Source: Acidobacteria bacterium 13_1_20CM_3_53_8
GTDB lineage: Bacteria > Acidobacteriota > Blastocatellia > Pyrinomonadales > Pyrinomonadaceae
Direction: 5' to 3'
Length of the DNA stretch: 64,000 nt
NCBI GenBank assembly: GCA_001920415.1
Contig: MNJR01000126.1
Span: 1 to 64,000, forward strand
Below are positions 9,695 through 56,305 of the stretch, piece after piece. The notes under the pieces were generated by a model, which searched no databases, was not told the DNA's origin, and saw only the letters and a list, made by a program, of their open reading frames with translations. The number at the start of each line of letters is the position of its first letter. Positions within the stretch are counted from its first letter, which is position 1. A program made the translations under genes and the position numbers.

Positions 9695-10978
9695 ATGAAC
9701 AAGCTGCGAATCTTCGCCGCGTCGCCATCGGACGTAGCAGCAGAGCGCGCCAAAGTGGAAACGGTCGCAGCGATGCTGAAGCCTATGGCCGAATATCTGG
9801 GCATCGCACTCGAAGTGCTTGACTGGCGCGCGGTCGTACCTGATATGGGACGCCCCGAACAGGTCATTCTCAACCAGCTTGAGCCTACAGACTGGGATGC
9901 GTTCATAGGCATCCTCTGGCATCGCTTCGGCACACCGCCCGGCGGTCAAGACCCGCAAACGCAGAAAGAATATTTGGCGGGCACGGAAGAGGAGTTTAAG
10001 ACCGCGCTTCGTCTATCGAAAGATTACGGCAAGCCGCGCATCATGATGTATCGCTGCACGCGACAGCTACCGTACGACGTTGACCCAGACCAGTTCAAGC
10101 GCGTTAAAGAGTTCTTTGCTCAATTTGAGGCTATCAAGGGCGAGCATCCGGGCTTGTATCACTCATTCGATACCATCGAAGCGTTCGAGAAACTTCTCCT
10201 CGATAATCTGCAAAGGCTCTTGCTAGACTACGGCGAAAAGATCAAGGGCAAGCCGATTGACCCGGAAGTTATCCAGGAGTTCGTTCCTAAAATTCCAGAC
10301 AATCTGCCGCGCCGCTCATCCTTCTTCGGGCGCGACAAAGAGATGGAAGCCGTGATGCGCGCTCTCAGTCCCGAAGACCGCACGTGGGGCGTGCTCCTAG
10401 ACGGCATAGGCGGCATAGGCAAATCCGCGCTCGCTGTCGAAGCCGCATATCGCTGCAAAGAGAAAGGCTCGTTCGACGCATTCATCTTCGTCAGCGCCAA
10501 GCAGAACATCCTAGCGCCAGAGAAAATCCGCGAACTCGTGCCGGTCGCTCGCACGCTCGACGAATTTCTGAACGAGACAGCGCGCATCCTTGGCCGCATA
10601 GATATTCCTAAACTTGCCAGCGACGGCAAGCGACGCGCCCTGCTCGACGCGCTGCGCGAAACTCCCACGCTGCTCATCTACGACAACCTCGAAACGCTAA
10701 CGAAAGATGAGCAGGAGACAATGGCAGACTTCCTGCGCGAACTGCCGCAAAAGTGCAAGGCAATCATCACAAGCCGACGGCGCGGCGGTGAAGGCGCGGT
10801 CTGGCTTAGGTTTAGCCGAGAAATTACGGCGCGCGGGCGAGGCGCGATGGCAAGAACTGTACGACGCGACAGGCGGCTCGCCCCTAGCACTGACCCATAC
10901 GCTTGGGTTGATGCGAGTACGCGCGGCATTAACGTTCGACAGAGCACTGGAAATGCTTCGCGGCAACCGCGACTCTGA
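9695..10978 (+). CDS. DUF4062 - NB-ARC STAND NTPase, N-terminal half (frameshifted)
   Basis: Residues 1-175 form a DUF4062 domain (KLRIFAASPSDVAAER start), an N-terminal module often found on STAND proteins. An NB-ARC-type ATPase follows: Walker A GIGGIGKS at 237-244, Walker B TLLIYDNLETL near 325-335, and sensor motif AIITSRRRGGEG near 356-367. From about residue 372 (near 10808) the frame departs from the family and ends in meaningless arginine-rich sequence at 10978. The missing part continues in the +1 frame, listed separately. STAND proteins are signal-sensing switches, some of them antiphage; here the ATPase is intact up to the break. Strong ribosome binding site GGGAGG before ATG 9695. 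Confidence 0.82.
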   Translation: MNKLRIFAASPSDVAAERAKVETVAAMLKPMAEYLGIALEVLDWRAVVPDMGRPEQVILNQLEPTDWDAFIGILWHRFGTPPGGQDPQTQKEYLAGTEEEFKTALRLSKDYGKPRIMMYRCTRQLPYDVDPDQFKRVKEFFAQFEAIKGEHPGLYHSFDTIEAFEKLLLDNLQRLLLDYGEKIKGKPIDPEVIQEFVPKIPDNLPRRSSFFGRDKEMEAVMRALSPEDRTWGVLLDGIGGIGKSALAVEAAYRCKEKGSFDAFIFVSAKQNILAPEKIRELVPVARTLDEFLNETARILGRIDIPKLASDGKRRALLDALRETPTLLIYDNLETLTKDEQETMADFLRELPQKCKAIITSRRRGGEGAVWLRFSREITARGRGAMARTVRRDRRLAPSTDPYAWVDASTRGINVRQSTGNASRQPRL

Positions 10979-12224
10979 TTTGCAACAGTTCGTCTTTCAA
11001 GAAGCGCGCAAGGAGTTAACCACAAATGATGTGACTGCGCTCCGCGCCCTCTCGTTCTTCGTCCCATCCGCCACGTTCGAGGCATGGATGGACGTTGCCA
11101 AACTTTCCCGCAACGAGTTAGAGATTACGATTGACCGCCTGAGCGCACTCTCGTTGATAGATGTCTTAGCAGGCGAGGAACGTTACGCCCTACACCCGCT
11201 CACGCGTAATTTTGTACGCGGCGAACTGCTAGCGGACGAGCAAATAACGCTTGAGACTGGGTTGAGCTTTGCTAGTTACTGGGTAGCGTATGCAGAACGA
11301 TATGGAGGTGACGAAGAGAATTACAAAACATTTAATCTTCTTGAATCTGATTGGGCAAATCTCGAAGCGGCGGCAGAATGGCTGTGGCAAGCAATAAAGA
11401 TACAAGGCGAAAACGTTAATGATAAGGACGCGGCTTTGATGCTTAATGACTTAGCAAACGCTCTATGCAGTACGTCAGGCCCTCTCTTTTATTTAGGTCG
11501 GTGGGATGCTCACCTACAACTGAGCACGCGCGCATACGAATCAATAAGTGCTTTAGGTGAATGGAGCGAATCAGGTTGGCGAGCGTATCAGGCAGCGTGG
11601 GTTTACTACTATCGTACTAACAACGAAGAGGCTGAGCGCTGGGTAGGTCTCTGTGCTGAGGCATGGGCACGCAACGGGAGCAAATACGAGCAAGCAGTCA
11701 GTATGAGCGTACGCGGGCTAATAGCACAACAACGAGGAGATTTCGATGTCGCCGAACGACTATTTCAGGATGAGCTAATGATTTTTCGCGAGTTGAATTC
11801 TGATGAGGAAATTGCGAACGTGTTAAGCGTATTGGGAGGAATCGAGGAAGACCGAGAACATTACGATGCTGCGGAGCAATATTACCGCGAATCTTTAGAT
11901 ATAAGTCAACGAGGGAGATATACACATTTCACTCCTGTAGTGTTCGGCAACTTAGGCAACCTCGCGTTCGAGCGCAAACGTTGGGCAGAGGCACGTGACT
12001 GGTATGAGAAAGCATTGCTGATAGGGCACGAAATTGGGCGGCAAGATTTGATTGCAGGTGCACAATATGGTCTCGCGCGGGTTTATGAGTCGGAAGGGCA
12101 GCTTGACCTTGCACTGTCGCTGACGCAAGAGGCACTAGTGATTCATGAGAAGTTACATCACGGAGATTTGCAGTTAACAAGGGAATTGGTAGAGAGGTTG
12201 AAGAAGAAAATAGATGAGCAATAG
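10707..12224 (+). CDS. STAND NTPase, C-terminal half with TPR repeats (frameshifted)
   Basis: This frame holds the continuation of the preceding gene. Coherent homology starts at about 10810 (GLAEKLRRAGEARWQELYDA) and runs through the winged-helix region (SFFVPSATFEAWMDVAKLSR, YALHPLTRNFVRGELL) into tetratricopeptide repeats (for example EEIANVLSVLGGIEEDREHY and WAEARDWYEKALLIGHEIG) that would sense a ligand or partner. The first 35 codons of the open frame merely overlap the upstream frame. Returning to frame needs +1 nt, and about 15-25 residues between the NB-ARC sensor motif and GLAEKL seem absent, so a deletion of 3n+2 nt is more likely than a point indel. Confidence 0.75.
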   Translation: MSRRQWQTSCANCRKSARQSSQADGAAVKARSGLGLAEKLRRAGEARWQELYDATGGSPLALTHTLGLMRVRAALTFDRALEMLRGNRDSDLQQFVFQEARKELTTNDVTALRALSFFVPSATFEAWMDVAKLSRNELEITIDRLSALSLIDVLAGEERYALHPLTRNFVRGELLADEQITLETGLSFASYWVAYAERYGGDEENYKTFNLLESDWANLEAAAEWLWQAIKIQGENVNDKDAALMLNDLANALCSTSGPLFYLGRWDAHLQLSTRAYESISALGEWSESGWRAYQAAWVYYYRTNNEEAERWVGLCAEAWARNGSKYEQAVSMSVRGLIAQQRGDFDVAERLFQDELMIFRELNSDEEIANVLSVLGGIEEDREHYDAAEQYYRESLDISQRGRYTHFTPVVFGNLGNLAFERKRWAEARDWYEKALLIGHEIGRQDLIAGAQYGLARVYESEGQLDLALSLTQEALVIHEKLHHGDLQLTRELVERLKKKIDEQ

Positions 12225-12251: not shown

Positions 12252-12414
12252 ATACTAGATTGCAGAATGAAGTAAGGAACGGCGGGGGCAAGCCCGCCTT
12301 CCCTACCTGTGAGATTATAAAAGTTGAGCTTTTGGGATTTAACCTCTCAACTTAATCAACCTCAAAGGTAAGGAAGGCGGGCTTGCCCCCGCTCTTTAAT
12401 CTAATTCGCAATAT
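12252..12414. mobile_element. MITE-like element, family H (GCGGGGGCAAGCCCGCC), copy 1
   Basis: The outer part (ATACTAGATTGCA... at 12252) and the GCGGGGGCAAGCCCGCC arms (about 12281-12299 and 12374-12392) match the copy at 56131-56305, including loop text GTTGAGC. It lies between convergent genes and could also terminate transcription both ways. The right terminal repeat is less well preserved than in copy 2. Confidence 0.65.
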
Positions 12415-17287: not shown

Positions 17288-17842
17288 ATGAGGCAATTAG
17301 CCAAACGCTTGCTTACGGTTGACGAGTACGAGCACATGGGCGAGGCGGGCATCTTTCACCCGGATGACCGCCTTGAACTGCTTGAGGGAGAGATTTACGA
17401 ACTGCCATACATTACTCCGCCTCACGCCGCTTGCGTTACATATCTGAACATGCTTTTACATCATCTTTTCTTTCGCATGTTCATTATTTCGGCGCAGCAC
17501 CCAATCCGCCTCGACGATTTCTCAGAGCCACAGCCGGACGTTGCGCTCCTGCGCTGGCGAGACGATTTTTATCGCCACGCGCACCCGACACCCGAAGACG
17601 TTCTGCTTGTCATCGAAGTAGCAGATTCAACGGTTGAAAGTGATCGCTCCTACAAGATTCCGCTCTACGCGAAAGCTGGGATAACAGAAAGCTGGCTCGT
17701 CAATCTTCTCGAAGAGCAGATAGAGCTATTTGCAATGCCCGCAAACGGCGTGTATCAAACTGGCAGAACCTTCAAGCGCGGCGACGCGGCGCAGTCATAC
17801 ACAATTCCTGACCTCAGCGTCAGCGTCTCTGATCTACTGTAA
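17288..17842 (+). CDS. Uma2 family endonuclease-like protein (DUF820)
   Basis: 184 residues. The pattern LTVDEYEHMGEAGIF, DDRLELLEGEIYE, EPQPDVALL, LLVIEVADSTVESDR and YAKAGITESWLVNL is characteristic of the Uma2/DUF820 PD-(D/E)xK nuclease fold, with the putative catalytic D (QPD), E (VIE) and K/Y (YKIPLYAKAG). The biological role of this large family, abundant in cyanobacteria and Acidobacteria, is unknown. The start at 17288 lies directly at the end of a family C hairpin, without a recognisable ribosome binding site. The C-terminus overlaps the end of the convergent HicB-like gene by 9 bp. Confidence 0.88.
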   Translation: MRQLAKRLLTVDEYEHMGEAGIFHPDDRLELLEGEIYELPYITPPHAACVTYLNMLLHHLFFRMFIISAQHPIRLDDFSEPQPDVALLRWRDDFYRHAHPTPEDVLLVIEVADSTVESDRSYKIPLYAKAGITESWLVNLLEEQIELFAMPANGVYQTGRTFKRGDAAQSYTIPDLSVSVSDLL

Positions 17843-22726: not shown

Positions 22727-25369
22727 ATGGCGACCATTGAAGACGCCCTCACAGCGCTCCATGCACATTTCGGCTTCGAGGATTTCCGCGAAGGCCAGCG
22801 CGAAGTCGTAGGCTCTATCCTTGCGGGGCACGATACGGTCGTGGTGATGCCTACGGGCGGAGGCAAATCGCTCTGCTACCAGTTGCCCGCGCTGATGCGC
22901 GAGGGTGCGACGATAGTGGTCTCGCCGCTTATAGCCTTGATGAAAGATCAGGTGGACGCGCTTCAGGCCAGAAACCTTCCGGCCACTTTCATTAATAGCT
23001 CTATTGATTTCGAGGAACAGAAATCGCGCATAGCCGCCCTGAAACGCGGCCACTTCAAGATGGTCTATGTCGCGCCTGAGCGATTCCGAAGCGCACACTT
23101 CGTAGAAGCTTTAAGAAACGCGAACATCACGCTCTTCGCCGTTGACGAAGCTCATTGCATCTCGCACTGGGGTCATGATTTTCGCCCGGATTACCTGCGC
23201 CTGAAGACTGCGTTAGAATCCATTGGCCGACCGCAAGCGGTCGCGCTCACGGCTACGGCCACGCCTTACGTGCGCTCTGACATAATAGAACAGTTGGGCT
23301 TGCGAGAACCGCGCACATTCGTAAGCGGCTTCGACCGCCCGAATCTTTCAATCAACGTCGTACACACAGAAAAAGAGCGTGAGAAGATAGCTCATATCAA
23401 ACGGCTGGCGGCCACGGCAGGAGGCTCAGGCATCATCTACACTTCAACGCGCAAAGCTGTCGAACAGATTTCCGGGCGTTTGCAGTCAGCGAGCTTGAAC
23501 GCCGTCAGTTACCACGCAGGGATGGATGATGCCGCTCGCACACGTGCGCAGGACGAGTTCATGAGCGGGCGCACGCAGATGATCGTTGCCACGAACGCTT
23601 TCGGCATGGGCATTGACAAACCAGACATACGTTTCGTCGCACACTACCAGCTTCCCGGCTCAATCGAAGCTTACTATCAGGAGATTGGTAGAGCAGGGCG
23701 TGATCGCTTGCCTTCGACCTGCGTTCTGCTCTTCAACTACGCGGACAAGCGCACGCAGGACTATTTTATAGAAGGCTCCTACCCTCCGCCCGAAGCAATC
23801 GCGCGCGTTTACGAGGCGCTCACGGCAACAGGGCAGAAGCGTATAGAGCTTTCCGTGAGCGAGATAGCGGCGCGTGCAAGTGTTCGCAACGAGATGGCAG
23901 TGCAATCTGCGCTCATCATTTTAGAGAAGGCAGGGCACATAGAGCGCGGGAGCGCCGCAGAGAATCGCGCAAACTTGCGCCTTCTCATGCCCAAACACCT
24001 TGCGCGTGAAGCGGTTGGCGAGCGTGACACAAAAGCGCGGCAAGTTCTCTTCGGCATCTTGGGCGGGTACGACATAAGCGAGCGCGCTGATGTGGAGCTT
24101 GACGTAGCAGAGTTTGCAGAAACTATGGCGCTTGATCTAGCGAGCGCGCGTCGTGCCTTCTCCGCTCTGGCATCTTCCGGCATCATCTCGTACCAGCCCG
24201 CGCGCAGGACTCGCGGCGTGCTTATGCTTGACGAGCATCCTGTCAAACAACTTCGCATACGCCCGCAGGATATTGCTCGCCGCGCCGCGCTCGAACAGCG
24301 CAAGCTGCGCGAGATGATCAATTTTTGTTACACGGATAGCTGCTATCGCGCCTTCATACTGGACTACTTCGGCGATCCGCATCACGCCCAAAACTGCGGC
24401 ACGTGCGGCAACTGCGACCCTCAGATGAAGAGCGTTGCCTCGCAAGGGCAAAGCGTACAGCCTCCGATTGACCCATTGACCGAGCTTGATCGCTTTGTTC
24501 GTGAACAAGTGCCTTTCGCTACTGATTTGGAGGAAGATTTAAAGGAGAGCGCGCGCATGCGCCGCGTGGGCGAGACGGCGGAAGCCGGTGCACAGGGCGA
24601 AGAAGCTGAAGCCGCTTTGAGCATCACAACCGCACGCGCGCTCACAATGGAAGAGAGCCTTCTTGTCAGAAAAATCTTAGCGTGCGCGGCGCGTATGCAG
24701 GGCAGATTCGGGAAAGGACTGCTCGCATCAACGCTCCGTGGCTCGCGCGCCAAACAGGTATTGCAGGCCGGTCTTGACCAACTCTCAACCTACGGCATCT
24801 TGAGCGACATGACGCAGGACGAGATTCTTCTTTACATTGATGCGCTCGTCGCGGCTGGCTGCCTGCACGTGACTGGCGGCGCTTATCCGACCGTTTCACT
24901 CACTCCTCTTGGCGGCGACGTGATGCGCGAGCGCGAGTCTCTCGAGCTTGCTATTGCAGAAACCGCTCTGAGCGCTCTGGCTCATCAATCACCCGTCGCC
25001 ACCACGCGCGCTTCACGCGTAACGGAAGATGCGAAGCGCGTGAGCACGGTTGACGAAACTTACACGCTCTACTGCGAAGGACTTTCGATAGAGGAGATAA
25101 GCCGTCGGCGAGGACTCACTGAAATCACAATCGAGAAGCACCTCGCCGATTGCATTCAACAGGGGCGCGAGTTCGACATCACGCGCCACGTCTCGGACAG
25201 AGATCGCGCGGCGATAGAGTTAGCCATAGAGCAACTCGGCACAGAGCAATTGAGACCACTTCGGGACGCTCTACCAGCACACATCAACTACCGCATGATT
25301 CGCTTCGTCGTCGCCGACATGCAACGCGTAGGACAGAGCGATAGCGATAAGCTTGAAGGTGATTTATGA
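22727..25369 (+). CDS. recQ: ATP-dependent DNA helicase RecQ, long form
   Basis: 880 residues, longer than the typical 600. The helicase core is complete: Walker A TGGGKS (residues 43-48), VDEAHCISHWGHDFRPDY, TATATP, and the motif V/VI region YYQEIGRAGRD. The RQC zinc site follows with NFCYTDSCYR and CGTCGNC. Beyond residue 600 are extra regions including HRDC/RQC-like winged helix (LRGSRAKQVLQAGLDQL) and a helix-turn-helix module (YTLYCEGLSIEEISRRRGLT). RecQ unwinds recombination and replication intermediates. The stop overlaps the next gene's start by 4 bp, implying translational coupling. The start lies 5 nt after a hairpin element. Confidence 0.95.
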   Translation: MATIEDALTALHAHFGFEDFREGQREVVGSILAGHDTVVVMPTGGGKSLCYQLPALMREGATIVVSPLIALMKDQVDALQARNLPATFINSSIDFEEQKSRIAALKRGHFKMVYVAPERFRSAHFVEALRNANITLFAVDEAHCISHWGHDFRPDYLRLKTALESIGRPQAVALTATATPYVRSDIIEQLGLREPRTFVSGFDRPNLSINVVHTEKEREKIAHIKRLAATAGGSGIIYTSTRKAVEQISGRLQSASLNAVSYHAGMDDAARTRAQDEFMSGRTQMIVATNAFGMGIDKPDIRFVAHYQLPGSIEAYYQEIGRAGRDRLPSTCVLLFNYADKRTQDYFIEGSYPPPEAIARVYEALTATGQKRIELSVSEIAARASVRNEMAVQSALIILEKAGHIERGSAAENRANLRLLMPKHLAREAVGERDTKARQVLFGILGGYDISERADVELDVAEFAETMALDLASARRAFSALASSGIISYQPARRTRGVLMLDEHPVKQLRIRPQDIARRAALEQRKLREMINFCYTDSCYRAFILDYFGDPHHAQNCGTCGNCDPQMKSVASQGQSVQPPIDPLTELDRFVREQVPFATDLEEDLKESARMRRVGETAEAGAQGEEAEAALSITTARALTMEESLLVRKILACAARMQGRFGKGLLASTLRGSRAKQVLQAGLDQLSTYGILSDMTQDEILLYIDALVAAGCLHVTGGAYPTVSLTPLGGDVMRERESLELAIAETALSALAHQSPVATTRASRVTEDAKRVSTVDETYTLYCEGLSIEEISRRRGLTEITIEKHLADCIQQGREFDITRHVSDRDRAAIELAIEQLGTEQLRPLRDALPAHINYRMIRFVVADMQRVGQSDSDKLEGDL

Positions 25370-34312: not shown

Positions 34313-37300
34313 TTATGAAGACGGCCCGTTCCTTGCGACAATCGTCCGAATGCTGCCGAACCCCGCGACCGTCTCAATAGCTCTCATATCAAGATTATCA
34401 AAACGCGGGAACGCTGCGTCTCGCGCTCTGCTGTCGAGTGCTGCCTCGGATGATGACGAGGACGGGCACTCCTGGTTGTTGCGTGGGATGATTGCACTGA
34501 ATCTCTCCTGATACTCCTTCGACGTAACGAAGGCGCAGACCATAGAGCGATAGTTTCCGGGCACGCGATTGTTCAAAACGTCCAGCCAGAAGTTGTAGCC
34601 GCCCGTGTCCGGGTTGCGTCTGAGGAAGAGGAAGTATTGCGAGAGCACGAACGCGCGATTAAATTCTGCGTCCTTGAACTCCTGATACTCTACAAGCTTG
34701 CGCAGCGTGTTCGCCCGCCCCTTCGCGGTGTTGCCGTCGCACGTAGTCACCATTTCGCTCCTGTGCGAAGAGAGATCAACGCCCGAATGCTGCTTGACGT
34801 TCTGTATGAGCGCGTCAACGAATTGATCGCAGCTAAGCGTTGACGGGTACTGCGCCGTAAACGCAGACCGCTGCACGAACTCCTCTGCGAATGCCTGCTT
34901 GTTTGCCTCCTGGTCTGAGCCTACGGCTATGCGATTGCGGTCGCGCATGAAGACAAGATAGTCTGGCAGCGTCCCGAACGAAGCCTTGTGCAGACGGTAG
35001 ATGTAGAAGCCTGTAGCTTGGAACTCCTGTTCTATGAAGAATGCTGCGGCTACGTCTATGCGACGGTTGCGAGTGCAGGTGGAGTCCGAGCCGCACTTGC
35101 TTATCTGGCTAGACCAGTAATCAAGGCCGCCCGAATCCGCGTCGCGGTTCAGGAAGTCGTGATAAAGCTGCGAGACAAAGTTGCGCGCGTCCTCAATCGG
35201 GTTTGTCTGCGTCGCCTGATTCTCGTTGTCGTTTATGAAGAGCGTGGCCGTCGAAGGGCTTCCCAGACTTGCTCCGCCCGTAGGGTTCGAGAGCGTGACG
35301 TTGAGCGTCTCGCTTCCTTCCGCGTAGCCGTCATCATTTATCAACACAGGGAAGCTCTTGCTTGTTTCGCCGGGCGCGAAAACCAGATGCCCCGACGCGA
35401 ACTCGTAATCGCTCTTCTGCGTCGCCGTCCCATCGCTAGACTCGTAATCAACCGTAACCGTATTGCTCGCAGAGCCGTTGAGCGTGACCGTGAGCGTCGC
35501 CGTCACGTAGCCTTCCGTCACGACATAATTCGTCTGGTTGAATTGTAGCGTTGGCCCACCGGGCGACGGTGATGGTGATGGTGATGGCGAAGGCGAGGCA
35601 GAGGGTGAAGGCGAAGCAGAGGGCGACGGAGACGGTGACGGCGAAGGCGATGGAGATGGAGATGCCGTCGGGCAAGGCTGATTGCCTACAAGCTCGTAAG
35701 CGAACCCTGTGTACGGGTCCTGGAAAGTCCTGCTGTTCGTGTCCGTAGCAGATTCAGACCTGAGCGTTGTGCCGCCGTTGCCAGAGAAAGTTCTTCCCAG
35801 TATTGTGCCGAGCACATCACCGGCTTTAGCGCCGCCGATCTTGCTCGTTGAAAGCACGACTGTGATGATGCCGTTCTGCTGGTCTATAGAGCCACTGTCA
35901 GCCGCGCCGTACATGTTCGGCTTCGCCGTGTTGACAGGCACAGACTCGACGGTCGTAACGGTTCCGTATTCAAACGAAGTAACGCCCGAAGCGTCTGTGT
36001 TCATTCCGCAATAGTACGAGCCTGTGAAATCCGCGTCCTGAATGTTCTGGCCTTTAATCGGATAGTTCCACAAAAATCTCCATTGCCGGTTAGGCAAAAG
36101 CGTGCTCAAATCCGACACCTTCATCTTGAAGGCAAGCTTGTTCACGCCGCCTTCAACGAAATCCGCGACGCGAACTTCGCGCACGTCCAAATCGGCGTTC
36201 GCAGGCGCGCCTTTCTGATCGCCCGCAGGGTCTGGCGCTACCAAGATGCCTGCGCATCTGGAATCGCCCTGCGGTCTGGAGATGACTTCGTTGTTGCCAC
36301 ACGAAGTGCCTTGCGCGTTTACGGCTGTGACCTTGTAGTAGTAGGTCGTGTTCGCGTCCGCAGTCGTGTCGTCGTAACTCGTCACGTTGCCAGCAACGCT
36401 CGTTAAAGTTGTCTCGCCGCCCGGCGTAGTTCCGCGCAGTATGCTGTAACTGATAATCGCCGAGCCTCCGTTGTCGGACTCAGACCAAGTTAGATGAGCA
36501 ACGCCGTCGTCGCGCCCGACCGTTAAGAGCGGAGCGCCCGGCGGGGTCGGTTCAGATGGGTCAGCTCCCGCGAACAGTCTTCTGCCGCCCGTCTGACGCG
36601 CTATCGCAGCGAGTTGTGTGTAAGCGTTGCCGGTCGCGCTCTGCGGAGCCTGCACGCAGCCAGCACCCGTGCAACCGTCCGCGTAAGCGACTTCGATTCT
36701 TCCCTGCTTGTCTATGTCAATGCCTATGAAGTCCAGAAGATTGCGGTGCGGAGGCGAGCCGCCGCCCAAGTGTATGCCGTTGCGCTGGACTGGATCGTTA
36801 GGTGTTGCGTCCGAGATGAGCCACGTCTGCCCGCCGTCATATGTGGTTGCTATATAAAGATGGAAGACGCCCGGAAAGTTTCGCGGCTCCGGCGCTCCTT
36901 GCGTGGTCGAGCCTAAGAAGGCGAAGGCCGCGCGGTCGTCGTCGCCCGCAACTATGGTTGGGAAAGCGACGGACTTGATTCCGGCGAGCGCTCCTACGTT
37001 GAAGACGTTCTTCCAACTCTTGCCTTCGTCGTCCGAGACGGCGACGCCTGCGACAGTATCCAGGCTGCTGAATCCTATATAAACTCTGCCGGTGGGGCTT
37101 CCGCTCGGTTTCGTCTTCACGACGTCGCCGCGCCCTATGGCGATTGCAGGGTCGCTATTAGACGCAGACGTTCCGGGAACCTGGCTTATGCTCCAGGTTA
37201 TTCCGTTATCATACGAGATGACGGTCGCCTGCATGTTGCCGCAACTCTCGTTCGGCAAATAGACCGTACCGTTGGGCGCTACTTTGACGTGCCCGTGAAG

Positions 37301-37951
37301 GTTTGTGCATTGGTTCAAATTGTAAGCGGGCACGCCCGCGCCGAAGTGCAGGCCGCCGTCATCGCTGCGAGCGCAGAAGGCTGTCGCCACGTCTTGCGAG
37401 CAATAATAGATGGCGTGCGGGTAAACGGTTCCAGTAAGCGGCGCATGATATGGGCCAGCGCCAATCGTTTGGTGGTCAACGCCTGAAGGAATGCCTCCGC
37501 CCTGACTCGGCAACCAAGTGTCGCCGTCATCATCCGTAAAAGCAGAAAGGCTGTCCTGACCTGTCAACTCTGAGACGAATGTGCGCCCGGTGTCGGGGTT
37601 CTGATGGTTGTAGCCGTGATCCGTGAAGAGTATTGGGTCAAGACCGTCGGCGTTGTTCGGCGCGCTTCTGTCTTCCCATGTCGCGCCGGGCGTCGTCGGG
37701 CATGAGTCATCGAATGTCACGCGCAGCGTCGTCAGGTTAGAGATGTACATAGCCCTATTGGTCTTCCAGTTCACACCAATAGAAGGCTCGCCCGCATCCG
37801 TCCCCTTGCCCGTAGTGTACATGCTGTAAGGCGGATAGAAATTCTGGAAGCGTGGCGCTAAGCCGCTGCCTTGCGTTCCGGCCCCTACAGAGGGTATCAC
37901 GGTGGCCGTGCCGTGATACTGATCCGCTGCGGTCGCCGCGAAGTAAACCAC
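34313..37951 (-). CDS. Giant secreted BNR-like / Calx-beta / DUF4214 protein, main part (frameshifted at N-terminus)
   Basis: About 1212 residues in this frame, which is open upstream to about 38040 and joins the fragment 37989-38372 by a one-base frameshift. Order: sialidase/BNR-like beta-propeller (repeated DDGDTW, SYDNGITW, SDDEGKSW motifs), fibronectin type III domain (SYSILRGTTPGG), a jelly-like domain, a PSPSPS linker, a Calx-beta domain (SDGTATQKSDYEFASGHLVF), and a C-terminal DUF4214 domain (YHDFLNRDADSGGLDYW; FWLDVLNNRVPGNYRSMVCA). Such domains are extracellular and adhesive or carbohydrate-binding. Tandem paralogue of the next gene at 38496-42551, which has the same order. Confidence 0.85.
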   Translation of the reverse strand: MVYFAATAADQYHGTATVIPSVGAGTQGSGLAPRFQNFYPPYSMYTTGKGTDAGEPSIGVNWKTNRAMYISNLTTLRVTFDDSCPTTPGATWEDRSAPNNADGLDPILFTDHGYNHQNPDTGRTFVSELTGQDSLSAFTDDDGDTWLPSQGGGIPSGVDHQTIGAGPYHAPLTGTVYPHAIYYCSQDVATAFCARSDDGGLHFGAGVPAYNLNQCTNLHGHVKVAPNGTVYLPNESCGNMQATVISYDNGITWSISQVPGTSASNSDPAIAIGRGDVVKTKPSGSPTGRVYIGFSSLDTVAGVAVSDDEGKSWKNVFNVGALAGIKSVAFPTIVAGDDDRAAFAFLGSTTQGAPEPRNFPGVFHLYIATTYDGGQTWLISDATPNDPVQRNGIHLGGGSPPHRNLLDFIGIDIDKQGRIEVAYADGCTGAGCVQAPQSATGNAYTQLAAIARQTGGRRLFAGADPSEPTPPGAPLLTVGRDDGVAHLTWSESDNGGSAIISYSILRGTTPGGETTLTSVAGNVTSYDDTTADANTTYYYKVTAVNAQGTSCGNNEVISRPQGDSRCAGILVAPDPAGDQKGAPANADLDVREVRVADFVEGGVNKLAFKMKVSDLSTLLPNRQWRFLWNYPIKGQNIQDADFTGSYYCGMNTDASGVTSFEYGTVTTVESVPVNTAKPNMYGAADSGSIDQQNGIITVVLSTSKIGGAKAGDVLGTILGRTFSGNGGTTLRSESATDTNSRTFQDPYTGFAYELVGNQPCPTASPSPSPSPSPSPSPSASPSPSASPSPSPSPSPSPGGPTLQFNQTNYVVTEGYVTATLTVTLNGSASNTVTVDYESSDGTATQKSDYEFASGHLVFAPGETSKSFPVLINDDGYAEGSETLNVTLSNPTGGASLGSPSTATLFINDNENQATQTNPIEDARNFVSQLYHDFLNRDADSGGLDYWSSQISKCGSDSTCTRNRRIDVAAAFFIEQEFQATGFYIYRLHKASFGTLPDYLVFMRDRNRIAVGSDQEANKQAFAEEFVQRSAFTAQYPSTLSCDQFVDALIQNVKQHSGVDLSSHRSEMVTTCDGNTAKGRANTLRKLVEYQEFKDAEFNRAFVLSQYFLFLRRNPDTGGYNFWLDVLNNRVPGNYRSMVCAFVTSKEYQERFSAIIPRNNQECPSSSSSEAALDSRARDAAFPRFDNLDMRAIETVAGFGSIRTIVARNGPSS

Positions 37952-37988
37952 GTGAACGGTGTAATCGCCCGCGCCGTAAGTCGTAGCA

Positions 37989-38372
37989 TCAATGTCCGCA
38001 GACTCGAAAGTCGTCGTGCCGTTGCCTGCTCGAAGGGCTAGTCCAGTGAAGCTCTACGTGCGCGAGTTTTCCAGCCCAATCTGCGGTCGTCCCGGCAAGA
38101 GTTAGACGAAAAGTGTCGCAGTTAACTCCATCAACGCATGTCGTCTCGTCCACGTTAGCGCCGCCCGCCAGTGTGCCGTTCCAATCAACTTTGTTCGAGG
38201 CATTCGTCGAAGTGAATACGGGCTGAAGCGTTCCCCCGGTCGGATTCGCCGCCTCAGACGGACGAAAAGGCAGAAGGCAGACAGCCGCTGCGATCATTAG
38301 AACGAATACAAGCAACCAGAATTTACGGGCGTTCGCCTGCCCAAGACTTTGACCCATGCTCTTCATCTTCAA
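37989..38372 (-). pseudogene. N-terminal fragment of the BNR/DUF4214 gene (signal peptide part)
   Basis: 127 codons: signal peptide (FWLLVFVLMIAAAVCLLPF) followed by a pre-peptidase-like domain start (CVDGVNCDTFRLTLAGTTAD). The sense part ends at HVELHWT near 38045; the following 20 codons are out of frame. In the alternative frame the protein continues with LALRAGNGTTTFESADIDAT into the main reading frame. A single inserted base or two deleted bases near 38040-38050 explain it. The domain equals residues 85-190 of the intact paralogue. Real gene breakage, slippage or assembly error are all possible. Confidence 0.75.
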
Positions 38373-38395
38373 ATCTCCTTAAGCGAGGCTCATAA

Positions 38396-38497
38396 GGGAG
38401 GATGGAAGGGATGAGGGATGAATAGGATTGAGTCAATTGCATGTTGACACAACCACTCCTTCTTACTCATCCCTCATCCCTCATCCCTCATCCCTTT
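38396..38497. repeat. Hairpin element, family E (GGGATGAGGGATGA words), copy 1
   Basis: Left arm about 38396-38425, right arm about 38465-38497. The loop (AATTGCATGTTGACACAACC, ACTCCTTCTTACTCAT) is nearly the same as in the copy at 59826-59942. It abuts the stop codon of the gene at 38496. Confidence 0.8.
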
Positions 38498-41400
38498 ATT
38501 GCGACGGGCACTCTCGATTGCTGCGCGGCACTACTGCGCTGAATCTCTCCTGATACTCCTTCGACGTGATGAAGGCGCAAACCATAGAGAGATAGTTGCC
38601 CGGCACACGGTTGTTCAAAACATCAAGCCAGAATTGGTAGCCGCCCTCGTCCGCATCGCGCCTCAGATAGAGGAAGTATTGCGCAAGGACGAACGCGGGG
38701 TTGTACTCCGCATTGACAAATTCCTGATAGCCCACCAGTTTGCGCACAACGCGGGCGCGGCTGTTAGTTTGATTCGTGCCCGCGTTGTACTCGCTGATAA
38801 GCTCGCTACGGCGACCGGAGGAGTCCACCTTGGAATTCTGTTTCACGTTCTGAATCAGGGCGTCAACGAATTGATCGCCGCTGAGACTGAGCGGGTATTT
38901 ATTTACAAATTCCGTGCGCTGCACGAACGCCTCTGTGTATGCCTGCTGGCTCGCATTGGGGTCGGAACTTGCAAGCAGACCGCTGCGATCCGTCATGAAC
39001 TGAACGTAAGTTGGCCTTGTGCCTAGCCCGCCTTTGTAAACGCGGTAGACGAAGAACCCGGTCTGCTGGAACTCTTGTTCTATGAAGAATGCTGCGGACA
39101 CGGCTCTGCGACGCTGACTGATACAATTGGCGTCCGACCCGCATTGTGTTATCTGGCCTGTCCAGTAATTCCATCCGTCCGAATCCGGGTCGCGCGCAAG
39201 GAAGTCGTGATACTGCTGATAGACGAAGTTGCGCGCGTCTTCAATCGGGTTCGTAGCGGAAGCAGACGGATCATCGTCCGTGATATTCAGCGTCGCCTGA
39301 CTGGGGCTTCCTATGGTCGCGCCTGACACGACGGTGAATTGAACGGTCGCGGCCTCAGTGCCTTCCGCGTAGCCGTCCTCAGTGGTGAGCACTTGGAAGC
39401 TCTTGCTTGTTTCGCCGGGCGCGAAAACCAGATGCCCCGCAGCGAACTCGTAATCGCTCTGTTGCCTGGCCGTGCCATCATTCACCAGGTAATCAACCGT
39501 GGTCGTACCCGAAGTGTCGCCCGTGCGGGTTACAACTACTGTTGCCGGACTACTGAAAGCCTCCGACGCTGTGTAGCTGGATGCGCTGAATTGAACTGTC
39601 GCTCCTTGAGCGGGTGACGGGCTGGGCGAAGCGCTCGGACTAGGTGATGCTGTAGGGCTTGGCGAAGCGCTAGGTGAAGGACTTGCAGAAGGAGACGGTG
39701 AGGGCGATGGCGAGGGCGACGGCGCTGGCGCGCAAGAGGCGTTGCCTACAAGCGTGTAATTTCCATCGCCCGTTATGTCCTGAGCATTTCGCTGCCCCTT
39801 CTCCACGTTTGCGGACTGGCCCAAAAACGTCCTAGCGTTAATCTGTGAGAGGCTCTGACCGGCGTGAATGTTCTCAGCCTTGCTGTCGGAAAGTATGATC
39901 CTGATTGTTCCTGAAGCAGGGTCATAGCTTCCGCTATCTGCGTCGCCGAGTTTGACGGCCATGTTTGCGTTCGGGTTGGGATCGGTCGTAGGAACAACCA
40001 ACGGTATGCCGAACTTCCCGTACTGGAAACTGACCTGCCCCGTGGAATCAGACTCCATAGCAACGTAGTAGCGATCAAAATTCTGATCCGGGTTCAGACG
40101 ATTCCATATGATATACCACTGGCTATTGGGCGGCGCTCCCATCACCGATGACGGCGTCATCTTCAACGTGAACTCAAGCTTGCTAGACCCGTCTGAAAAG
40201 TATGGCTCTGCGACGAGCAGTTGCTTTATGTCCACGCGCGGATCGGGCGGCACATTCGGCGCGTCGTCCGACGGATCATCAACGACCAGCACGCCCGGCA
40301 GCGTACAAGGGTCTGTAGGCGGGCCAGCGCCAACAGGCGTGGGCGCGAACTCGCCGCACGACCCGCTCTCGCCCACTGCGTTCACAGCCGTCACCTTGTA
40401 GTAGTAGGTTACGTTCGCACCTGTGGCCGTAGTATCCGAATAAGAATTCACTACGCCGAGCGAGACCAGCAGCGTCTCTGCGCCCTGCTTCGTCCCGCGA
40501 TAGATTTTGTATCCGGTTATGATTGAGCCGCCGTTGTCCGGCTCCTGCCACGCAAGATTGACCGCGCCGGTAGCGCTGCGCGCAACCTTTGTCACCTGCG
40601 GAGCTTTAGGAGCTGTAGGCTCCGCCGGATCGAATTCGTGAAAAAGACTCTTGCCGCCCGATTGACGTACTATGGTTGCGAGAGCGCTGTAAGAGTTGGG
40701 TGGCCCCGTAACGCAAGAGCCTATGCAGCCGTCCGCGTATGCGACTAGAACGCGCCCCTCCCTGTCTGTGGTCGCGTCAATGAAGTCCAGAAGGTTGCGG
40801 TCGTTCGGCGTTCGGTCACAGGGTACAGTGCCCTGGTCGCAGATAGAGCCGCGCTGAACTGGATCGTTCGGCGTAGCATCAATAGTAGTCCACGTTCCAC
40901 CGCCATTGAATGTCTCTGCAATGTAGAGATGCCAGACTCCCTGAAAGCCCACGCCCGTATTGAAGTTGGTCTGCGACGCGTAATCGCCCGGCGTCTCTGT
41001 GCCTATGAAGGCAATAGCGGCCCGGTCGCCGTCGCCTGCGGTCACAGCCGTGTAAACTGCGTTCTGCAATCCTAACGCTGCGCCCACATCAGTATTATTC
41101 TTCCAGTGCTGACCATGATCTTCGGAAACCGCAGTGTGCGGGTGACCGTCTCCGTTCTGGTAACCCACGTAGATCATGTTGTTCGTGCCTATGCCGATTG
41201 AAGGGTCTTCAAGTCCTTTCGCTTTTGTCGCGCCCGGAATCATACGAACATTCCATGAAACGCCGTTGTCTTGCGATACGGCCACGCCCTGCCCGTTCGT
41301 CCCGCAATTAGCATTCGGAACATAGACGGTTCCGTCCGGCGAGACCTTCACGTGCCCGTGTATGCCTCCGCACGTGCCGGGAGTCCAGGTCGGAACGCCC

Positions 41401-42551
41401 GGCCCGAAAGTCAGGCCGCCATTGTCCGAGCGAGCGCAGAAGGCCGTGACGCTCTCTTGCGAGCAGTAGTAAACGGCGTGCGTAGATAAAGGATGAGGCG
41501 GAGGCGCAGGTGAAGCGTTCGCGTTGTAAGGCCCGGCGCCAATCGTCTGATGATCAACTCCCGAAGGGATTCCGCCGCCCTGACTAGGAGTCCAGGTGTT
41601 GCCATCATCATCCGAGAAAGATGTAAGACTGTCTTGCCCCGTCAACTGCGAGACGAACGTTCGCATGGCATCCGGGTTCGCGTGATTGTAGCCATGATCC
41701 GTGAAGAGTATTGGGTCAAGACCGTCCACAGAACTGGGCGCGCTCACATCCTCCCAGCGCGCTGTTGCTGGCGACGGGCAATCGTCGAACGTTACACGCA
41801 ATGTTTGCAGGCCAGCTTCATACATCGCCGTCCCGCCGTTGCCGTTTCGCTCCGTCTTCCAGTCCACTCCGATTGAAGGCTCGCCCGCATCCGTTCCTAA
41901 TCCGCCGGGCGCAGCGTAGTTAATGAACCTTGGAACGCCCGGAACGACAGGCGTGGGCTGAGGCGTTGGCGTGGGCGAAGGCGTAGCCACTTGATTCAAA
42001 GCTATTGTCGCGTGGAAAGGAACATCTGGCTGCACGTCGTAGGGCACAACGTAGATGGTATAAGCGCCTGAAGAGGCGGCGAACGAAGCGACCTCCGGGT
42101 TGCTCGAACCGCCGCCCTGTCCTGCCTTTGTGCCCGTCACGTCCGGCTTATAGACGTACAGGTCATAGTCCGTCACCATGTTCCCCTGCGTCGTTAGAGA
42201 TTGGCTGTTAGTCCAGCCGACCGTAACCGTGAGGGCGTACTTATTGGTGTCTCCCGGCGGAATCACAACCGTCAGCGCGAATTGATCGCATGTGCCGGGC
42301 GCGCAGACAGGCGGCGTGTTGCCCAGAGGAGCCGACGGGTTCGATACAGGGAAAGGGCCGCCCGTATAATTAATTGGAGCGCTGCCGGGCGAGAGCGTGC
42401 CGCTTGAAGGCGTCCCCGCCTTTACATTCTCAGCCACAAGGCTGGACGAAGGCGTGACGCTCAGCGCGACGCCGACGAATAACATCATGCTTAATAAAAT
42501 TGTTGCTACTATGACATGTCGTTTTTGAGAGCGATGGGGCATGTATTTCAT
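38496..42551 (-). CDS. Giant secreted BNR-like / FN3 / Calx-beta / DUF4214 protein
   Basis: 1351 residues, intact. Signal peptide (VIVATILLSMMLFVGVALSV), pre-peptidase-like beta domain (CDQFALTVVIPPGD, TDYDLYVYKPDV, YTIYVVPYDVQPD), short Pro-Thr linker, BNR-like beta-propeller (FSDDDGNTWTPSQGGGIPSG, VSQDNGVSW, VSEDHGQHW), FN3 domain, a PSPSPSPSPSASPS linker, Calx-beta domain (NDGTARQQSDYEFAAGHLVF) and DUF4214 (YHDFLARDPDSDGWNYWTGQ). It is expected outside the cell or on its surface. Stretches of near-identical DNA with the downstream paralogue, for example around 39404-39466 and 35360-35422, suggest recent duplication or gene conversion. Confidence 0.9.
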   Translation of the reverse strand: MKYMPHRSQKRHVIVATILLSMMLFVGVALSVTPSSSLVAENVKAGTPSSGTLSPGSAPINYTGGPFPVSNPSAPLGNTPPVCAPGTCDQFALTVVIPPGDTNKYALTVTVGWTNSQSLTTQGNMVTDYDLYVYKPDVTGTKAGQGGGSSNPEVASFAASSGAYTIYVVPYDVQPDVPFHATIALNQVATPSPTPTPQPTPVVPGVPRFINYAAPGGLGTDAGEPSIGVDWKTERNGNGGTAMYEAGLQTLRVTFDDCPSPATARWEDVSAPSSVDGLDPILFTDHGYNHANPDAMRTFVSQLTGQDSLTSFSDDDGNTWTPSQGGGIPSGVDHQTIGAGPYNANASPAPPPHPLSTHAVYYCSQESVTAFCARSDNGGLTFGPGVPTWTPGTCGGIHGHVKVSPDGTVYVPNANCGTNGQGVAVSQDNGVSWNVRMIPGATKAKGLEDPSIGIGTNNMIYVGYQNGDGHPHTAVSEDHGQHWKNNTDVGAALGLQNAVYTAVTAGDGDRAAIAFIGTETPGDYASQTNFNTGVGFQGVWHLYIAETFNGGGTWTTIDATPNDPVQRGSICDQGTVPCDRTPNDRNLLDFIDATTDREGRVLVAYADGCIGSCVTGPPNSYSALATIVRQSGGKSLFHEFDPAEPTAPKAPQVTKVARSATGAVNLAWQEPDNGGSIITGYKIYRGTKQGAETLLVSLGVVNSYSDTTATGANVTYYYKVTAVNAVGESGSCGEFAPTPVGAGPPTDPCTLPGVLVVDDPSDDAPNVPPDPRVDIKQLLVAEPYFSDGSSKLEFTLKMTPSSVMGAPPNSQWYIIWNRLNPDQNFDRYYVAMESDSTGQVSFQYGKFGIPLVVPTTDPNPNANMAVKLGDADSGSYDPASGTIRIILSDSKAENIHAGQSLSQINARTFLGQSANVEKGQRNAQDITGDGNYTLVGNASCAPAPSPSPSPSPSPSASPSPSASPSPTASPSPSASPSPSPAQGATVQFSASSYTASEAFSSPATVVVTRTGDTSGTTTVDYLVNDGTARQQSDYEFAAGHLVFAPGETSKSFQVLTTEDGYAEGTEAATVQFTVVSGATIGSPSQATLNITDDDPSASATNPIEDARNFVYQQYHDFLARDPDSDGWNYWTGQITQCGSDANCISQRRRAVSAAFFIEQEFQQTGFFVYRVYKGGLGTRPTYVQFMTDRSGLLASSDPNASQQAYTEAFVQRTEFVNKYPLSLSGDQFVDALIQNVKQNSKVDSSGRRSELISEYNAGTNQTNSRARVVRKLVGYQEFVNAEYNPAFVLAQYFLYLRRDADEGGYQFWLDVLNNRVPGNYLSMVCAFITSKEYQERFSAVVPRSNRECPSQ

Positions 42552-56131: not shown

Positions 56132-56305
56132 TACCAGATTGCAAAACAAAATAAGGAAGAGCGGGGGCAAGCCCGCCTTCCCAACCTATGAGGTTATGGG
56201 AGTTGAGCGCTTTAAATTCCAAAGCTCAAGATTATTAATCTCACTGGTATGGAAGGCGGGCTTGCCCCAGCTCTTCCTTCCTTATTTTATTGTGCAATTC
56301 GGTAT
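56131..56305. mobile_element. MITE-like element, family H, copy 2
   Basis: Imperfect 29-bp terminal inverted repeats beginning ATACCAGATTGCA (56131) and, on the other strand, ATACCGAATTGCA (ending 56305). Inside is the GCGGGGGCAAGCCCGCC arm pair (about 56161-56179 and 56252-56272). Related in arms, loop and left flank to 12252-12414. Confidence 0.75.

What the first reader, a model, noticed from the sequence alone, without database searches (positions are those of the whole stretch)
9695..12224. Broken DUF4062-NB-ARC-TPR STAND protein
An NLR-like immune/signal ATPase is split by a frame change at about 10808. The joining region seems to lack about 15-25 residues, implying a 3n+2 nt deletion. 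STAND proteins can be toxic when triggered, so inactivation might be selected. The TPR sensor half remains open to its end, so the break should be recent. The sequence GGCTTAGGTTTAGCC at the junction could reflect a deletion between short similar segments or a frameshift site.
Basis: partly seen in the sequence, partly recalled or inferred. Interest (0 to 1): 0.55.

Follow-up and report, generated by a model that had tools for sequence, protein, structure and literature searches.

The report
Recently broken bacterial NLR-like immune receptor
A bacterial immune-receptor-like gene has lost 65 bases at the joint between its ATP-binding core and its sensor half, so it most likely no longer makes a working protein; the loss looks recent, and intact relatives exist in other bacteria.

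Summary
The gene at 9695-12224 is a DUF4062-like / NB-ARC / TPR STAND protein broken at 10805-10811. Two full-length relatives (Acidobacteria, front half 80% identical; Calditrichaceae, 67%) and one cut by its contig end (Chloroflexi, 53%) read straight through, as do 8 of 8 more distant homologues. Against each of the three the window lacks 65 nt (3x21+2), taking out the last strand of the nucleotide-binding domain and the first ARC helix. The front ORF stops at 10976; the sensor half stays open for 471 codons. Relative-rate tests show no significant decay outside the TPR region, and the open C half limits neutral divergence since the break to about 0.045 per site, so the loss is recent. The N domain is a diverged DUF4062 with a TIR/NDT-like fold; DUF4062 was reported in 2026 to be an antiphage NADase. 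Two additions: the gene's neighbours differ from its relative's (mobile), and its TPR sensor is no closer to its nearest relative than to the Calditrichaceae copy (sensor turnover). Selection for the loss is untested. Reads were not available, so an assembly error is unlikely but not excluded.

The parts
9695..10249 (+). N-terminal effector domain: diverged DUF4062, TIR/NDT-like fold; candidate catalytic Glu100 at 9992-9994
   Evidence: DUF4062 17.9 bits (below cut-off) and PDC-S60 4.6e-25; 7 of 10 homologous domains tested pass the DUF4062 cut-off; model pLDDT 84, VIA matches DNPH1, SPARTA TIR, RPS4 TIR; acidic run kept
10292..10804 (+). Nucleotide-binding domain: Walker A GIGGIGKS (10403-10426), Walker B LLIYDN, sensor-1 TSRRR; ends at the break
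   Evidence: AAA_16 36.1 bits, NB-ARC 25.9 bits over profile 2-138 of 248 only; motif names recalled
10805..10811 (+). Deletion joint: 7 nt where three relatives have 72 nt (65 nt missing)
10805..10978 (+). Out-of-frame tail (57 codons) of the front ORF, ending in TGA 10976-10978
10809..11249 (+). Rest of ARC / winged-helix region in the +1 frame, with the GxP-like motif GGSPLAL
   Evidence: 83% identical to G017 over 146 residues; motif name recalled
11250..12224 (+). TPR sensor region in the +1 frame, open to its stop; of different ancestry or very fast turnover
   Evidence: TPR_12 5.3e-21; 51.6% identical to G017 and 50.5% to L148; site-pattern shift chi2 29.3, p 4e-7

Best explanation
It is a recently inactivated receptor gene. 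The intact form is a bacterial NLR-like STAND protein: a TIR-like (DUF4062) effector, a nucleotide-switch NB-ARC core and a C-terminal TPR sensor. By analogy, binding of a trigger to the TPR region would let the core exchange nucleotide and oligomerise, bring the TIR-like domains together and destroy NAD+, as abortive infection. In this genome a 65-nt deletion removed the last strand of the nucleotide-binding domain and the first ARC helix and shifted the frame. Only a truncated effector plus P-loop with a 57-codon foreign tail can be made by ordinary translation; the winged helix and sensor are lost from it. Shown: architecture, deletion, open relatives, low decay, non-shared neighbourhoods. 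Inferred: NADase activity, phage trigger, loss of function.
For: G017, L148 and L149 and 8 swapped-effector homologues are open across the joint. The 65-nt gap is seen against 3 of 3. Five own-genome paralogues lie in open frames of 746-1124 codons; for 4 of the 5 the listed C-half match lies in a frame of the same length. Differences to G017 concentrate at third positions in the front half (0.143/0.111/0.411) and the rear half (0.264/0.210/0.536), so both halves were selected as protein for most of their history. No significant excess of change in the window lineage in effector (outgroups L148, L149), NBD or ARC/WHD. The C half has no stop in 471 codons; a neutral divergence above about 0.045 per site would give one with 95% probability. 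Fold and family. DUF4062 NADase and antiphage function: PMC13174449 (abstract, passages and first part of the results seen).
Against: No reads: an assembly error cannot be excluded. In the TPR part the window lineage has more changes than G017 (with outgroup G044 36 to 18, chi2 6.0, the only one of eight single-outgroup tests over 3.84; with L148 52 to 39, and first codon positions 53 to 30), which could mean some relaxed selection over a longer time, or sensor exchange. With L149 the effector counts lean the same way (14 to 7, chi2 2.3). The window's N domain does not reach the DUF4062 cut-off. No NADase or defence activity has been tested for this subfamily, and of 10 nearby proteins scanned the direct neighbours show no defence family.
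Confidence: 0.82

Rival explanations
1. Assembly or consensus artefact: the genome is a draft in 155 contigs and the 65 nt are missing only from the assembly.
For: Draft of 155 contigs, completeness 95.89, contamination 3.9; no read data; no second genome of the genus among the 145 searched.
Against: Both sides of the joint match the same relative at like identity (80% and 83%), so it is not a mis-join of different genes. One search lists no repeat of 12 nt or more at the joint that an assembler would collapse. 65 nt is not a typical sequencing error (general knowledge).
Confidence: 0.1
2. The halves still work: a low rate of +1 ribosomal frameshifting at CTT-AGG (10805-10810), or restart after the TGA at 10976 (TTG at 10980 in the C frame), makes a joined or separate C-terminal product.
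For: The in-frame CTT-AGG is the first six bases of the yeast Ty1 +1 site (recalled) and would lead exactly into the C frame at 10809. AGG is a minor Arg codon here (70 of 1013 Arg codons), and there is no in-frame CTT-AGG in 14,241 codons of 29 hand-picked window genes (about 1.5 expected from the codon frequencies). TTG 10980 follows the stop directly.
Against: A joined product would still lack about 22 residues that include a core strand and helix. L148 and L149 have Leu-Arg at this place (G017 has Trp-Arg), so the two codons look inherited and the site an accident. The only Shine-Dalgarno-like match among ten C-frame starts listed is at 11088, inside the winged-helix region.
Confidence: 0.05
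3. Old pseudogene under long decay.
For: TPR region diverged and lower in third-position GC (0.35-0.54 per 50-codon block, against 0.58-0.72 in all earlier blocks).
Against: No stop in 471 codons; normal relative rates in ARC/WHD; the drop starts at the sensor boundary near 11250-11260, not at the break.
Confidence: 0.03

Closest known systems
DUF4062 TIR-like NADases, Swarozyc (PMC13174449)
   Same: Homologous N-terminal domain family, TIR/NDT-like fold, conserved acidic site; patchy, horizontally spread
   Different: Swarozyc (KpSwz) has a portal-binding helix-turn-helix/winged auxiliary domain; here the rest is NB-ARC plus TPR, and this copy is broken
TIR_2 / NB-ARC / TPR STAND proteins of related genomes (G055, G115)
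   Same: Same NB-ARC, ARC/WHD and TPR plan, about 30% identical in the C half
   Different: Effector is a TIR_2 domain; frames open
DUF4062 / NB-ARC / TPR proteins G034 and G044
   Same: Same order of domain families, DUF4062 well over cut-off (70.3 and 76 bits)
   Different: Effector of another DUF4062 branch; core and sensor about 30-40% identical; frames open
PADLOC candidate PDC-S60
   Same: N-terminal 180 residues match at 4.6e-25
   Different: Match ends at profile position 173 of 906

Membership tests
DUF4062 (PF13271) | Pfam gathering score 24.7 | tested here: inconclusive
   Window 17.9 and G017 17.6 bits, both below; 7 of 10 homologous domains tested pass, L112 (21.3), L111 (no match) and G017 do not
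DUF4062 (PF13271) | TIR/NDT-like fold | tested here: met
   VIA Z 10.9 DNPH1, 10.7 SPARTA TIR, 9.9 RPS4 TIR, rmsd 2.7-3.6 over 128-137 residues; but an unrelated homoserine dehydrogenase reaches 9.5 and Foldseek gave no match at E <= 0.001
DUF4062 (PF13271) | Conserved catalytic glutamate | tested here: inconclusive
   TEEEF kept; last Glu present in 16 of 18 aligned domains; which Glu is catalytic is inferred
DUF4062 (PF13271) | NAD+ hydrolysis | not testable with these tools
   Needs an enzyme assay
STAND / NB-ARC | P-loop NTPase with Walker A, Walker B, sensor 1, ARC and winged helix in one chain | tested here: not met
   All motifs occur in the DNA but in two frames; the front ORF has NB-ARC profile 2-138 of 248 only. 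G017 has 3-208 of 248 in one frame
TPR sensor | TPR_12 over cut-off | tested here: met
   75 bits, C frame
Swarozyc | C-terminal portal-binding HTH/winged auxiliary domain | tested here: not met
   C-terminal part is NB-ARC plus TPR; auxiliary domain as described in PMC13174449

The most novel reading that the evidence does not exclude
The receptor first exchanged its TPR sensor (boundary near 11250-11260) and the resulting mismatch between sensor and core was harmful to the cell, so a knock-out at the NBD-ARC joint was selected: a bacterial counterpart of hybrid autoimmunity in plant NLRs (recalled).
Probability: 0.07. Interest if true: 0.6.

Novelty: new member of a known kind. Interest (0 to 1): 0.3.

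Why it matters
It documents a DUF4062-branch / NB-ARC / TPR receptor type in records named as three phyla, caught shortly after loss in one genome. It suggests separate ancestry of sensor and effector-core, and gives intact relatives in which the proposed NADase function of this subfamily can be tested.

Tried and rejected
First genome-contig scan with the window protein alone gave no relatives; the second with a two-row alignment gave three loci, one of which (L147) is the same contig as G017 (same length, same first 30 bases of the gene). Plasmid collection: 34 records matched, none over 80% of the query. PDB sequence search listed 14 sequences at E up to 1, best 4.8e-5, mostly pentatricopeptide and other repeat proteins over residues 184-264; judged chance. 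Foldseek alone gave no match at E <= 0.001; the TIR/NDT reading rests on VIA and on the DUF4062 scores of homologues. The solved KpSwz or TEP1 structures were not among the rows shown. The full-length model of G017 is poor overall (pLDDT 66, N domain mostly under 50) and was used only for secondary structure near residues 369-392, where it is also weak at 369-376. A defence island was looked for and not found next to the gene: of 10 nearby proteins given to PADLOC, matches were generic TPR and PDC-M71B (12477), PDC-S03 (17288) and helicase families such as DpdF for the RecQ-like gene at 22727. Literature searches gave no report of this gene or break in the listings seen; of PMC10907252 (hypermutated STAND sensors) only a passage was seen and it is not used as evidence. 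That is not proof of absence.

A script read a wrong record as the window and returned empty rows for it; it was repeated correctly. A note says 11 repeat pairs; the count is 10.

Full report
What is there. The window carries an ORF 9695-10978 (427 aa) and an overlapping ORF in the +1 frame that ends at 12224. Residues 1-370 of the first hold a weak DUF4062 match (17.9 bits, cut-off 24.7), AAA_16 and NB-ARC; the C frame holds TPR repeats. The N-terminal 180 residues match the PADLOC candidate PDC-S60 at 4.6e-25.

The break. In a search of 145 genomes (own included), both halves hit one open frame of 879 codons in G017 contig C93 (80% and 62% identity). The DNA alignment places a single 65-nt gap in the window at about 10805-10811. 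A scan of the GTDB contigs gave two further relatives: L148, titled Calditrichaceae MAG (open, 877 aa, with TPR), and L149, titled Chloroflexi MAG (open for 520 residues across the joint, then the contig ends, so its sensor is not seen). In 3 of 3 the stretch between the last shared Trp and the Leu-Ala (Leu-Gln-free alignment) of the C half is 24 residues, against 7 nt in the window. Eight more distant homologues, picked as the best core matches and carrying TIR_2, DUF4062 or other front ends, are also open there, and 5 of 5 own-genome paralogues lie in long open frames. An open frame does not prove that a copy works.

What was lost. In the model of the G017 protein the missing segment covers strand 369-373 and helix 379-392, between sensor 1 (TSRRR) and the GxP motif (local confidence low to moderate; motif names recalled). 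The front ORF keeps effector, Walker A, Walker B and sensor 1 and gains 57 foreign codons; it has no winged helix and no sensor.

How recent. Differences between window and G017 concentrate at third positions in both halves. Relative-rate tests on amino acids against eight distant outgroups (NBD, ARC/WHD, TPR) and against L148 and L149 (effector too) show no significant window excess in effector, NBD or ARC/WHD. In the TPR part one of eight single-outgroup tests gives chi2 6.0 (36 to 18), and with L148 the counts are 52 to 39 (chi2 1.9) and first codon positions 53 to 30. With simple assumptions (kappa 2-4, no selection, no indels), a neutral divergence over about 0.045 per site would have put a stop in the C half with 95% probability. 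The break is thus young compared with the split from G017 (dS 1.1-1.2 in the front half, 0.8-1.8 in the rear half by two methods).

The sensor has its own history. Outside the TPR region the window sides with G017: of the sites at which exactly two of the three proteins agree, 109 group window with G017, 33 window with L148 and 33 G017 with L148. In the TPR region the counts are 42, 39 and 52 (chi2 29.3, p 4e-7). Identity to G017 falls from 72-88% per 25-residue block to 36-64% at about 11259, and third-position GC falls in the same place. Exchange of the sensor in one lineage, or very fast sensor evolution, would both give this; the flat pattern favours exchange but three sequences cannot prove it.

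Mobility. The gene lies between msrPQ and an EF-G gene. Of 14 msrPQ regions fetched from relatives, several on short contigs, none has a match to the hydrolase or to the STAND gene nearby; one (G030) also keeps EF-G downstream in the same order, with one large TPR ORF between. G017's copy lies among genes that match none of twelve window genes tested apart from the STAND gene itself, and its msrPQ is on another contig. With relatives in records titled Calditrichaceae and Chloroflexi this points to horizontal movement.

Function. The N-terminal domain model (pLDDT 84) matches DNPH1 (an NDT relative, recalled), SPARTA TIR, RPS4 TIR and TIR-STING at Z 9.7-10.9, above the background of 7-8 stated by the tool, though one unrelated Rossmann-type chain reaches 9.5. 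Seven of ten homologous domains pass the DUF4062 cut-off. A 2026 preprint reports that DUF4062 proteins are TIR-like NADases that give abortive-infection defence and need an active-site Glu (PMC13174449: abstract, passages and first part of the results seen). The window keeps TEEEF, whose last Glu is present in 16 of 18 aligned domains. That this receptor was an NADase switch for phage defence is inference.

Could it still work? At the joint an in-frame CTT-AGG lies exactly where a +1 shift would enter the C frame. It resembles the yeast Ty1 site (recalled), and the review PMC5009743 (passages seen) describes indels compensated by frameshifting. But the product would lack the same residues, and L148 and L149 have Leu-Arg there too, so I treat this as accident. 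Reinitiation at TTG 10980 after TGA 10976 is possible in principle, without a visible ribosome site.

Verdict. A real, recent loss of a little-studied type of immune receptor; whether the loss was selected is untested.

Noticed in passing
12282-12392 and 56161-56271: REPIN-like element: inverted pair of arms about 109 bp apart, one copy just 3' of the broken gene; 25 exact hits of a 20-nt arm in the genome, 10 close inverted pairs, none with the reversed control pattern. Four Y1_Tnp genes in the genome could be the mobiliser.
   Followed up: partly
11250-12224: The TPR sensor is no closer to its nearest relative than to a copy from another phylum, unlike the rest of the gene.
   Followed up: partly
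L001 (G000:C92:31375-31632): The same genome has one clear DUF4062 domain (1.7e-21) in another open frame of 1031 codons.
   Followed up: no
17288-17842: Uma2-family protein (PF05685) that also matches PADLOC candidate PDC-S03.
   Followed up: no
34313-42551: Two very large neighbouring ORFs on the minus strand (1212 and 1351 aa) of similar look with a Ser/Pro-rich linker, perhaps tandem paralogues; not compared.
   Followed up: no
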